A DNA stretch of 36,441 nt from Thermodesulfovibrio sp. (GTDB lineage: Bacteria; Nitrospirota; Thermodesulfovibrionia; UBA6902): the NCBI GenBank assembly GCA_026982355.1, contig JALSHG010000117.1:1-36441 (forward strand). The letters are read 5' to 3'. Each line of letters starts with the position of its first letter. Position 1 is the first letter of the stretch. The position numbers and the translations under genes are program-made. The notes beneath the pieces were generated by a model. The model was not told the origin of the DNA. It searched no databases and saw nothing but the letters and a program-made list of their open reading frames with translations. Below, one piece after another: positions 121-36,441 of the stretch.

Positions 121-210
121 CATTACCTGCGTAAGGGTTCAGCTTTGTATTTTGCTTGTTTGTTGATGTATTATATAAACCTTGAATGTCGGATAACTCG
201 GCGGGGGAGC
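121..210 (+). mobile_element. Probable right-hand non-coding end of the insertion sequence
   Basis: This AT-rich, non-coding stretch follows the transposase stop and ends where GC-rich sequence (GGCGGGGGAGCGG) and a remnant of the local repeat family begin. The terminal inverted repeat cannot be identified because the left end of the element is outside the window, so the exact junction is unknown. A promoter-like pair, TTGCTT (152-157) and TATAAA (174-179) with a 16-nt spacer, points outward toward the epimerase gene and could drive it. Confidence 0.35.
152..179 (+). promoter_or_regulatory. Possible outward promoter at the IS end
   Basis: TTGCTT and TATAAA are separated by 16 nt on the plus strand, upstream of the epimerase gene at 247. 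The match to the sigma-70 consensus is moderate. The surroundings are AT-rich, so a chance match is possible. Confidence 0.3.
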
Positions 211-233
211 GGTATTTTTATGCTGCTGTAAGG
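211..233 (+). repeat. Right-end remnant of the 215-bp intergenic repeat
   Basis: GGTATTTTTATGCTGCTGTAAGG matches, at about 20 of 23 positions, the end of the full repeat copy at 23313-23526 (read on its minus strand). Only this end is visible here; the rest is missing or displaced by the insertion sequence on the left. As at 23313, the TAAGG end points toward a gene start, here the ATG at 247, 13 nt further on. Confidence 0.5.
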
Positions 234-9346: not shown

Positions 9347-9362
9347 TTAATATTCTCTCCTT

Positions 9363-9426
9363 TTTCCGATATCCCGTCGCTTTATAAAGGTTTTACGGCG
9401 GACCCGCCCGCCCGCTCATGCAACAT
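9363..9426 (-). repeat. Truncated copy (left end) of the 215-bp intergenic repeat
   Basis: Read on the minus strand, this begins GATGTTGCATGAGC and continues through CCGTAAAACCTTTATAAAGCG and GGGATATCGGAAA. It matches the left third of the copy at 36097-36311 almost base for base in its inner half, while the GC arm has diverged. The interior and right end of the element are gone. It fills most of the murC-murB spacer, and its outermost bases form the last codons and the TGA stop of murC. Confidence 0.8.
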
Positions 9427-23312: not shown

Positions 23313-23526
23313 CCTTACAGTTGCATAAAAACACCGCCTGCGGGCAGGGGAGTCTGACGGGGAAGCTTTATCCGCGATACCTTCAGGACATATCCCGCAC
23401 GGCATATTGCCATCTTTTGCAATTTCACTCTCCGTTACGTCCTGCAACAGGGACATATTTCCAGTATCCTATCGCTTTATAAAGGTTTTACGCCGGACTC
23501 CACAGCCGGCTTATGCAACATTAAGG
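23313..23526 (-). repeat. Full-length copy of the 215-bp palindromic intergenic repeat
   Basis: The 214-bp element has near-matching inverted ends: CCTTACAGTTGCATAA at the plus-strand left, and CCTTAATGTTGCATAA when the other end is read on the minus strand. Its interior differs from the 36097 copy at only about four positions over 92 nt. Nested pairing is visible: CAGGACGTA (minus) with TATGTCCTG, ATTGC with GCAAT, and ACGG with CCGT. The long outer stem is partly decayed here. It abuts the Mut7-C gene stop on one side and ends 5 nt before the potassium-channel GTG on the other, supplying that gene's AAGG. Confidence 0.85.
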
Positions 23527-24003
23527 TTAAGGTTTGAGAACATCCGACAGTTTTTTCCGCCATTTCTCGGGATGTGTCCCCCTCCAGTAAAACCTGCCGC
23601 ATTTCATGCACCGCCTGAAACCGTCCGAGGTGCGGTATACATAATCCGGGACATGCGGCCTCGCATCCTCCCCGGGCACGCTCACCGGGATAGTGTTGCA
23701 CAGGGAGCACCTGCTTGGGGAATGTTCCTTCAGCCGGCCGGATTCACCGCCGGGGAGCAGATGGAATGTGTTGATGACCGTTCTCAGCTGGTCGAACGTA
23801 TCGTTTTCATCAAGCAGAAGGAAATTCTTCAGACCCCTCCTCTTCACCAGGCGAGTATCCCTTGTAAGGAGCGTCCTGCCTTCCTCCTGCGCCGTTCTCA
23901 CCAGGATGCCGTCTTCAATTCGGGAGAAATACAGCGTATCATAGCCGAGCAGCCTTAACCACCTGGCAAGACGGCCGAGCATTGAATCGGCAATGAATTT
24001 CAT
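23527..24003 (-). CDS. Mut7-C RNase-domain protein with zinc ribbon
   Basis: 158-residue protein of the Mut7-C (DUF82) family, a PIN-like fold predicted to be an RNase. The N-terminus KFIADSMLGRLARWLRLLGYDTLYF holds the family signature with Asp5. LLTRDTRL (about 45-52) carries the second acidic site, and LDENDTFDQL a third. Two cysteine pairs, CSLC (about 98-101) and CMKC (about 132-135), form the C-terminal zinc ribbon. It follows rpoC by 26 nt, so it is likely co-transcribed with RNA polymerase genes. No target is known from sequence. Its stop touches a full repeat copy. Confidence 0.85.
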   Translation of the reverse strand: MKFIADSMLGRLARWLRLLGYDTLYFSRIEDGILVRTAQEEGRTLLTRDTRLVKRRGLKNFLLLDENDTFDQLRTVINTFHLLPGGESGRLKEHSPSRCSLCNTIPVSVPGEDARPHVPDYVYRTSDGFRRCMKCGRFYWRGTHPEKWRKKLSDVLKP

Positions 24004-33404: not shown

Positions 33405-33430
33405 CCTTACAGTTGCTTAAAAACACCGCC
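33405..33430 (-). repeat. 26-nt right-end remnant of the 215-bp repeat
   Basis: These 26 bases match positions 23313-23338, the end of a full repeat copy, at 25 of 26 positions. Only this end is present. It starts one base past the rplA stop and lies just upstream of the L10 leader in the direction of transcription. Confidence 0.75.
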
Positions 33431-35631: not shown

Positions 35632-35852
35632 CCTTCTTCAGCATTAAAATGTTAAAGTATCGACATCGGGGCAGGTGGGCCTGCCGGAAGAACTCCACCT
35701 GTGATTCCTCCGGAAGTACCCGGCACGGCATCTTTAATGTTTTCCCGGCTTCATTCATAACCGATTCCTGCAACAGAGACCTGTTTGCATTTACAAAATC
35801 CGGCCGCATTGCAAAGATTACGCGGCAGGCTGGCCTAGCCGCCCCTGAAAGG
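35632..35852 (-). repeat. Diverged full-length copy of the 215-bp repeat
   Basis: Read on the minus strand, this spacer follows the same plan as the 36097 copy: AACCTT start, a GC arm ending GCGTAA, CTTT, GGAT, AAAT, then TCTCTGTTGCAGGA identical over 14 nt. Later come ATGCCGTGC, and an end TTTTAATGCTGAAGAAGG like TTTTTATGCCGCTGCAAGG. Most other positions differ, so it is an old copy. A frame open to 35606 aligns with the 36097 copy's frame without gaps, sharing SLLQ, E, K, MPC and PE. An ATG at 35809 would give 67 residues, but it has no ribosome-binding site, so no gene is called. Confidence 0.6.
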
Positions 35853-36034: not shown

Positions 36035-36081
36035 CGTGTCCGTTTTTGATGTCTTCCGACGGTCACCGAATCACGGACACG
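36035..36081 (-). repeat. REP-like hairpin between rpmG and tuf
   Basis: CGTGTCCGT (36035-36043) and ACGGACACG (36073-36081) form a perfect 9-bp stem with a 29-nt loop. The same arms occur at 14613-14650. On the minus strand there is no T-run right after the stem, so it is not a standard terminator. It ends 15 nt from the neighbouring 215-bp repeat. Confidence 0.65.
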
Positions 36082-36096
36082 CCTCACCTTTTTTTA

Positions 36097-36311
36097 CCTT
36101 GCAGCGGCATAAAAACATCGCCTGCGGGCTGTGGAGTCCGGCGGAAAAGCTTTATCCGCGATACCTTCAGGACATATCCCGCACGGCATATTGCCGTCTT
36201 TGGCAATTTCACTCTCCGTTATGTCCTGCAACAGAGACATATTTCCGATATCCCATCGCTTTATTAAAGGTTTTACGCCGGACTCCACAGCCGGCTTATG
36301 CAACATTAAGG
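36097..36311 (-). repeat. Full-length copy of the 215-bp palindromic intergenic repeat
   Basis: This is the best-preserved copy. The arms GGCTGTGGAGTCCGGCG (36127-36143) and its exact complement (36276-36292) give a perfect 17-bp stem, extended inward by AAAA/TTTT and CTTTA/TAAAG. Inside, TATGTCCTG (36220-36228) pairs perfectly with CAGGACATA (36168-36176), and GGCAAT pairs with ATTGCC. The outer ends carry GCATAA/TTATGC and CCTT/AAGG. It begins one base after the tuf stop and fills most of the tuf-rpmG gap. A 70-codon open frame runs through it on the minus strand. Confidence 0.88.
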
Positions 36312-36312
36312 T

Positions 36313-36441
36313 TTATTCTATTATCTCCGTGACGACTCCGGCTCCCACCGTCCTGCCACCTTCCCTCACTGCAAACCTCAGCTCCTTCTCCATCGCTATC
36401 GGCGCTATCAGCTCTATCTCCATCGTCACGTTGTCCCCGGG
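36313..36441 (-). CDS. tuf: Elongation factor Tu, C-terminal 42 residues (cut by window edge)
   Basis: The frame encodes [20 protein letters not shown] and ends [17 protein letters not shown]-stop, the conserved end of EF-Tu domain 3. EF-Tu delivers aminoacyl-tRNA to the ribosome. The rest lies beyond the right edge. It is the first visible gene of the minus-strand run and is followed after one base by a repeat copy. Confidence 0.97.

What the first reader, a model, noticed from the sequence alone, without database searches (positions are those of the whole stretch)
36097..36311. An undescribed-looking family of 215-bp palindromic intergenic elements
Two close full copies (23313-23526 and 36097-36311), one diverged full copy (35632-35852) and partial copies at 9363-9426, 33405-33430 and 211-233 share ends and internal order. 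The whole element can fold into one long hairpin with nested inner stems; the outer stem is a perfect 17 bp in this copy. Like ERIC or NEMIS elements, it lies only in spacers of transcribed operons and always close to stops, ribosome-binding sites or starts of core genes. Six occurrences in 36 kb suggest a high copy number in the genome.
Basis: partly seen in the sequence, partly recalled or inferred. Interest (0 to 1): 0.72.

Follow-up and report, generated by a model that had tools for sequence, protein, structure and literature searches.

The report
One-way jumping hairpins near genes
A groundwater bacterium of the phylum Nitrospirota carries roughly 500 copies of a small hairpin-shaped jumping DNA that has no genes of its own, apparently moved by a borrowed enzyme (an IS1380-type transposase found in the same genome), and nearly all copies that lie between genes reading the same way point in one direction relative to those genes, which is unusual and unexplained.

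Summary
The 215-bp element at 36097-36311 belongs to a family with an extrapolated ~490 copies in this 2.62-Mb Nitrospirota MAG: ~105 full-length copies, plus ~91-bp and ~50-70-bp derivatives. It also occurs in two congeners and, more diverged, in other genera of the family. It is a MITE. The ends are CCTTACAGTGGCAT...TTATGCAACATTAAGG, with 4-bp TTWA target-site duplications (51/98 exact; 14 expected). An intact IS1380-family element in the same genome has the same ends and TTAA duplications. Rfam, phage, plasmid and viral collections gave no match.

(1) Orientation: in spacers between co-directional genes, 62 full copies have the element's minus strand as mRNA and 1 the plus strand; 15:1 in two congeners and 17:0 in other genera. 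It follows local gene direction, not replication, and holds for palindromic TTAA targets (20:0). (2) The innermost hairpin core is nearly invariant and covaries. It also occurs in another genus inside elements with unrelated ends.

Mobilisation by an IS1380 transposase is well supported. The cause of the orientation lock and the function of the core are inferred or open. Verdict: a new variant of a known kind.

The parts
36097..36311 (+). Full-length MITE copy (215 bp), ends CCTTGCAGCGGCAT...TTATGCAACATTAAGG
   Evidence: CM 260.8 bits; boundaries from the alignment with flanks and the TSD statistics
36093..36096 (.). Left target-site duplication TTTA
   Evidence: sequence; TSD test on 98 copies
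36312..36315 (.). Right target-site duplication TTTA; contains the TAA stop of the minus-strand ORF 36313-36441, whose C-terminal residues look like EF-Tu (my reading, not searched)
   Evidence: sequence, ORF list
36145..36165 (+). Left strand of the conserved core, AAAAGCTTTATCCGCGATACC
   Evidence: near-invariant across genera; shared with G044 elements of different ends
36255..36274 (+). Right strand of the conserved core, ATCGCTTTATTAAAGGTTTT (this copy has one extra T)
36126..36142 (+). Left arm of the variable outer stem (partner about 36277-36293)
   Evidence: fold; stem covaries across genera
23313..23526 (+). Full-length MITE copy; flanks TTGA / TTAA (TSD with one mismatch); right end abuts the TAA stop of the minus-strand ORF 23527-24003
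   Evidence: CM 252.1 bits; sequence
35632..35852 (+). Old, strongly diverged full-length copy; orthologous copy in congener G001 (L190:526-710)
   Evidence: CM 33.0 bits, E 3.7e-7
178..233 (-). Complete 56-bp short derivative with both ends (CCTTACAGCAGCAT...CATTCAAGG)
   Evidence: CM 23.1 bits, E 2e-4; sequence
9362..9426 (+). Fragment: right part of the element (model positions 145-209)
   Evidence: nhmmer 54.3 bits, E 2e-15
33405..33430 (+). Probable left-end fragment
   Evidence: 33-nt 91% match to the left end of the 23313 copy; not confirmed by the CM (E 0.73)

Best explanation
The element is a palindromic MITE. It carries the ends of an IS1380-family insertion sequence and is moved in trans by an IS1380-type transposase into TTWA targets, where it makes a 4-bp duplication (shown for ends, target and partner; the act of moving is inferred). 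TTAA/TTTA targets include TAA stop codons, so insertions often sit exactly at a gene's stop and the duplication restores the stop. After insertion the long hairpin tends to lose its inside, giving ~91-, ~50-70- and finally 34-bp derivatives (inferred from the nested sizes and one same-site pair). Among co-transcribed genes, copies survive almost only with the minus strand in the mRNA. My best guess is selection against the other orientation: it would put a C-rich, G-poor untranslated stretch of ~90 nt into the message, as in Rho-dependent terminators, and so cut off the downstream genes (inference; about 35% likely among the causes). Erosion of an already oriented full copy would explain why the short forms share the bias. 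The inner core is kept by the lineage of copies that keep jumping, probably because a protein or RNA-level step of the element's own life cycle needs it (inference). The confidence given is for the MITE/IS1380 part.
For: TIR: exact CCTTACAG ends, 99 pattern matches in the genome against 0 control. TSD: 51 of 98 identical 4-mers against 14.1 shuffled; without TTAA/TTTA, 18 against 0.92. Partner: PF13701 found an intact 481-aa protein, an IS1380 equivalog (NF033539, 234 bits; cut-off 180). The IS (L060:159-1689, 1531 bp) starts CCTTACAGTGGCATAAAA (18/18 with the MITE consensus), ends TTTTGCCACATTAAGG and is flanked by TTAA on both sides. A 68%-identical relative in another lineage has ends CCTTGTAGTTGCATAAAA / CCCTAACGTTGCATAAAA. 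I looked for IS1380 because of the TTAA target, before seeing it. Orientation: 62:1 (P 1e-17; young 31:1, old 31:0; TTAA targets 20:0), 46:6 in a 436-kb sample of all sizes, 15:1 in G001+G002, 17:0 in G051, G052, G018, G048. It follows local gene direction along contigs. C against G in the plus-strand loop: 27:13, 20.8:12.5 in other genera. Sizes; same site 216 bp in G001 and 68 bp in G000. Private mutations are spread evenly over the element (P 0.20), which argues against strong upkeep after insertion.
Against: No close copy of this transposase was found in the other genomes that carry the MITE, so the partner must have been lost there, missed in incomplete MAGs, or replaced. The MITE interior is unrelated to the IS interior. 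The ~91-bp class is balanced in C and G (25.5 against 26.3) but still 19:1; the Rho idea needs these to inherit the bias. No Rho site was tested. The shared core in elements with other ends suggests a use not tied to IS1380 ends. Gene directions come from my own simple gene finder on a MAG, without RNA-seq.
Confidence: 0.85

Rival explanations
1. A functional structured RNA. In the sense orientation the core acts in the mRNA of the host genes (processing, attenuation or stability), and copies are kept because they are useful; transposons only spread it.
For: One-way orientation over hundreds of sites in several genera; in divergent spacers copies within about 60 nt of a start nearly always have the same end toward the start; core with an invariant internal loop and 11 pairs changed on both sides, 95.9% of cells paired, covariation score 0.445 against 0.187 shuffled and at most 0.10 slid; the core is shared by elements with other ends.
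Against: Private mutations are not depleted in the core (8 in 25 sites, about 13 expected; whole-element test P 0.20). Short forms without the core keep the bias. In the variable stem, changes keep plus-strand wobble pairs, not minus-strand (mRNA) ones (51:17; 30:7). The G044 elements with the same core are 3:2 in orientation (few). No Rfam match.
Confidence: 0.2
2. Oriented insertion: the transposition complex reads the direction of transcription (for example at R-loops or behind RNA polymerase) and inserts one way, without selection.
For: Young copies are as biased as old ones (31:1 and 31:0); TTAA targets are symmetric yet 20:0; the bias follows the local gene strand, not replication.
Against: No such behaviour is known to me for DDE transposases. 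Flanking target composition looks symmetric. Elements also sit where transcription is unlikely (divergent spacers).
Confidence: 0.25
3. A REP/BIME-like element moved by a RAYT (Y1) transposase as single-stranded DNA.
For: Long hairpin; small palindromic derivatives.
Against: No Y1_Tnp (PF01797) in any of the three genomes of the genus, while 5 of 14 control genomes ring; true 4-bp TSDs.
Confidence: 0.02
4. A small coding element: a minus-strand open frame of about 50 codons in the window copy.
For: The minus strand of the 36097 copy is open over the loop (by eye).
Against: Copies with one-base indels; stop codons in the same stretch of G023 and g6 copies (by eye); no period-three pattern of change (by eye).
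Confidence: 0.02

Closest known systems
ERIC (enterobacterial repetitive intergenic consensus)
   Same: Palindromic, intergenic, co-transcribed with neighbours, MITE-like; its effect on upstream mRNA depends on orientation (De Gregorio 2005 as reviewed in PMC2229807)
   Different: ERIC is 127 bp with TA-type termini; here 215 bp, CCTTA ends, 4-bp TTWA duplication, an identified IS1380 partner, and almost one-way orientation genome-wide
Correia/NEMIS
   Same: High-copy palindromic MITE between genes of one genus
   Different: Other ends and host; RNase III cleavage is reported for Correia elements (PMC3049150), untested here
BOX, RUP and SPRITE of Streptococcus pneumoniae
   Same: Interspersed repeats; for BOX and RUP a partner IS is inferred from shared ends (PMC3049150)
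   Different: Those are over-represented between convergent genes; here most copies lie between co-directional genes, one way round
IS1380 family (ISEcp1) and eukaryotic piggyBac
   Same: The partner IS is an IS1380 equivalog, ~26% identical to ISEcp1; TTAA duplications with TAAA/TCAA/ATTA variants and CCCTT-type ends as in piggyBac (PMC10813416)
   Different: I found no paper describing an IS1380-linked MITE; none known to me at this copy number
REP/BIME with RAYT
   Same: Hairpin repeats near stop codons
   Different: No Y1 transposase in the genus; TSDs present

Membership tests
MITE | Terminal inverted repeats shared by all copies | tested here: met
MITE | Target-site duplication of fixed length | tested here: met
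   4 bp, 51/98 identical against 14.1 by shuffling
MITE | Short, high copy, no transposase gene of its own | tested here: met
   34-218 bp; ~105 full copies at or above 180 bits; 81 of all sizes in 436 kb; no conserved frame
MITE | A transposase-bearing IS with the same ends and target | tested here: met
   L060:159-1689, TTAA flanks
MITE | Filled and empty sites between relatives | tested here: inconclusive
   G001 filled (TTTA...TTTA), G000 empty at L056 ~14856, but flanks too diverged to read the target base by base
MITE | Transposition observed | not testable with these tools
   needs an assay
IS1380 family (partner IS) | Transposase above the curated IS1380 cut-off | tested here: met
   NF033539, 234 bits, cut-off 180; PF13701 149.7 bits, cut-off 34.7
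ERIC | TA-type termini and 127-bp ERIC consensus | tested here: not met
   4-bp TTWA duplication and CCTTA ends; length 215 bp. ERIC sequence similarity was not searched directly
REP/RAYT | Y1 (TnpA-REP) transposase in the genome | tested here: not met
Any Rfam RNA family | Match at or above the gathering score | tested here: not met
   (best chance hit on the element 20.8 bits against 50)
ISfinder-listed element or MITE | Match to a named entry | not testable with these tools
   ISfinder is not held

The most novel reading that the evidence does not exclude
The hairpin core is a functional structured RNA module (for example a cis-acting mRNA processing or attenuation element) that has been dispersed, in the useful orientation only, into hundreds of transcripts of Nitrospirota by at least two unrelated kinds of transposable ends, so that it forms a transposon-built, genome-wide post-transcriptional layer.
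Probability: 0.15. Interest if true: 0.88.

Novelty: new variant of a known kind. Interest (0 to 1): 0.66.

Why it matters
It is, as far as I could find, the first IS1380/piggyBac-type MITE described at very high copy number and the first large MITE family traced in Nitrospirota. The near-absolute orientation relative to transcription (62:1, repeated in other species and genera) gives a clean, testable case of either strong selection on what a repeat does inside an mRNA, or of transposition that senses transcription. The conserved core inside elements with unrelated ends points to a motif whose job can be tested directly.

Tried and rejected
RAYT/REP origin: no Y1_Tnp in the genus while controls ring. 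Known RNA: no Rfam match at the gathering score, and only chance hits below it. Phage, plasmid or viral carriage: no match. Target asymmetry as the cause of orientation: rejected, TTAA copies are 20:0 and target flanks look symmetric. Replication direction: rejected, the bias follows the local gene strand within contigs. A minus-strand peptide: indels, stops in relatives, no period three. Strong upkeep of the sequence after insertion: private mutations evenly spread (P 0.20). Promoter or intrinsic terminator in the element: no sigma-70-like site in it and only one weak terminator-like site in the 23313 copy. MITEs paired with the related IS in G187, G406, G328, G272: a narrow exact pattern found none, which does not exclude diverged ones.

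Full report
Setting. The window is contig C117 of a 2.62-Mb, 119-contig MAG (100% complete, 0.55% contamination). A genome of the same family (G023) has a contig C91 of 37,324 bases, the length of record JACQXG010000012.1, titled 'Nitrospirae bacterium isolate NC_groundwater_1509'.

The observation. The element at 36097-36311 and the copy at 23313-23526 are real and strong. A blastn search scored only 40 of 612 candidates and returned about 40 full-length copies at 85-98% identity. A covariance model built from 36 copies, limited to the 150 best candidates, gave 149 matches, of which about 105 are full length at 180 bits or more. In 436 kb read directly (window plus 20 stretches), 81 copies reach 23 bits, which extrapolates to about 490 in the genome and about 2% of its DNA (my arithmetic). 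The exact left-end pattern occurs 99 times and its reversed control never. The same genus (G001, G002) is also rich in copies. More diverged copies occur in genus g6 (G051 24, G052 21, G023 11, G018 2 matches at E<=1e-5) and in small numbers elsewhere in the family.

What it is. Aligning copies with flanks shows the element proper, CCTTACAG...TTAAGG, between short repeats. On 98 full copies the flanking 4-mers are identical in 51 cases against 14.1 when pairings are shuffled. Leaving out TTAA and TTTA, it is 18 against 0.92, at most 5 in 2000 shuffles. The duplication is thus 4 bp, consensus TTWA. TTAA targets and CC(Y)T ends are typical of the piggyBac/IS1380 group (PMC10813416), so I searched the genus for PF13701. 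It gave one intact protein of 481 aa at C48, an IS1380-family equivalog (234 bits, cut-off 180), about 26% identical to ISEcp1. Its element is 1531 bp, begins CCTTACAGTGGCATAAAA, which equals the MITE consensus over 18 of 18 bases, ends TTTTGCCACATTAAGG (14 of 16) and is flanked by TTAA on both sides. Contig C48 also ends in a weak match to the MITE interior, which fits its belonging to this genome. Relatives at 68-69% identity lie in other Nitrospirota lineages; one has ends CCTTGTAGTTGCATAAAA / CCCTAACGTTGCATAAAA. The IS and MITE share only their ends. No close transposase was found in the other MITE-bearing genomes, so the mover seems to come and go. There is no Y1 (RAYT) transposase in the genus.

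Sizes. In the sample the copies fall into about 215 bp, 89-97 bp, 44-70 bp and one of 34 bp, all with the same kind of ends. At one site congener G001 has a 216-bp copy and G000 a 68-bp copy, in the same orientation. The simplest reading is stepwise loss of the hairpin's inside. That the 91-bp class shares one junction suggests it may also move as such. Both readings are inferred.

Structure. The stem at columns 32-48/187-203 changes its sequence almost completely between species and stays paired, for example A-U, G-C, C-G and U-A at one position. In my parsimony counts on 98 copies, changes from Watson-Crick in the inner stem make plus-strand G-U three times as often as A-C (51:17, P 4e-5), with no such bias in the end repeats (26:32). 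Minis show 35:10, and other genera 26:6. Since the mRNA carries the minus strand, either the plus strand is the one that needs to fold, or hairpin-breaking changes are favoured in the mRNA. I cannot tell which; cells are not fully independent.

Orientation. My own hexamer-based gene finder gave 353 genes in the sample. In spacers between co-directional genes 46 copies have the minus strand as sense RNA and 6 the plus strand. For the 98 full copies (some shared with that sample) it is 62:1 (P 1e-17), the same for young (31:1) and old (31:0), and 20:0 for copies in the palindromic target TTAA. Along contigs the elements flip with the genes, which speaks against replication as the cause. G001 and G002 give 15:1 (a few sites are shared with G000). 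G051, G052, G018 and G048 give 17:0. In divergent spacers, copies close to a start nearly always turn the same end to it. The literature I could search held no such report, though ERIC acts on mRNA in one orientation only (PMC2229807). Of the explanations, selection against the plus strand in mRNA is my first choice: its loop is C-rich and G-poor in two genera (27:13; 20.8:12.5), like Rho-dependent terminators (established knowledge). Oriented insertion and a useful RNA remain open.

The core. Across genera the innermost stems, a G-G mismatch and a 2x3 internal loop hardly change. Thirteen matches in G044 (genus g14) were found; the ten read in detail share this core, AAAAGCTYTAYCNGCRAYACC...RTYGCWTTRTARAGGTTTT, but have other outer stems and other ends (left GGAAAAATGCATTTGATAGCATATTACAACAGG). 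On 20 sequences of both kinds 95.9% of cells pair, 11 pairs change on both sides, and the covariation score is 0.445 against 0.187 shuffled and at most 0.10 when slid. In the G000 sample the core occurs only within CCTTA elements, apart from weak matches. The G044 elements show no orientation bias (3:2, too few). Private mutations within G000 copies are not clearly depleted in the core, so its conservation belongs mostly to the lineage that keeps jumping. Why two kinds of element share it is unexplained.

Verdict. The element is a high-copy MITE with an identified IS1380-type partner; as a class this is known. The one-way orientation and the shared core make it a new variant worth experiments.

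Noticed in passing
G000 contigs C12, C18, C39, C49, C70, C75, C81, C90, C100, C105 (starts), C87 and C106 (ends): Many contigs begin or end inside the element: the repeat breaks the assembly, so true copy number is probably higher than counted.
   Followed up: partly
L206, L212, L217, L222, L226, L230, L258-L261 (G044): A second family of palindromic elements in genus g14 with the same inner core but ends like GGAAAAATGCATTTGATAGCATATTACAACAGG; its transposase is unknown.
   Followed up: partly
L190:105-319 (G001), spacer orthologous to window 36047-36311: G001 has a full copy in the same spacer (rpmG-like gene to EF-Tu-like gene), apparently at a different point from the window's copy: an independent insertion in the same spacer.
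   Followed up: partly
L061:1492-3009 (G002:C299): A different IS1380-family transposase whose nearby end reads CCTTACACAAGCGT; it is not the partner of this MITE by its end sequence.
   Followed up: partly
L056 about 14856 (G000) against L149 (G001): Site filled in G001 (TTTA...TTTA) and empty in G000; flanks diverged.
   Followed up: partly
variable stem, 98 copies and alignment A4: Strand-biased wobble: plus-strand G-U changes exceed A-C about 3:1 in the stem but not in the end repeats, while the unpaired loop shows the opposite tendency (G>A above C>T per site).
   Followed up: partly
L083:601-816 (G000:C71): The only full copy in sense orientation between co-directional genes; young (241 bits).
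   Followed up: no
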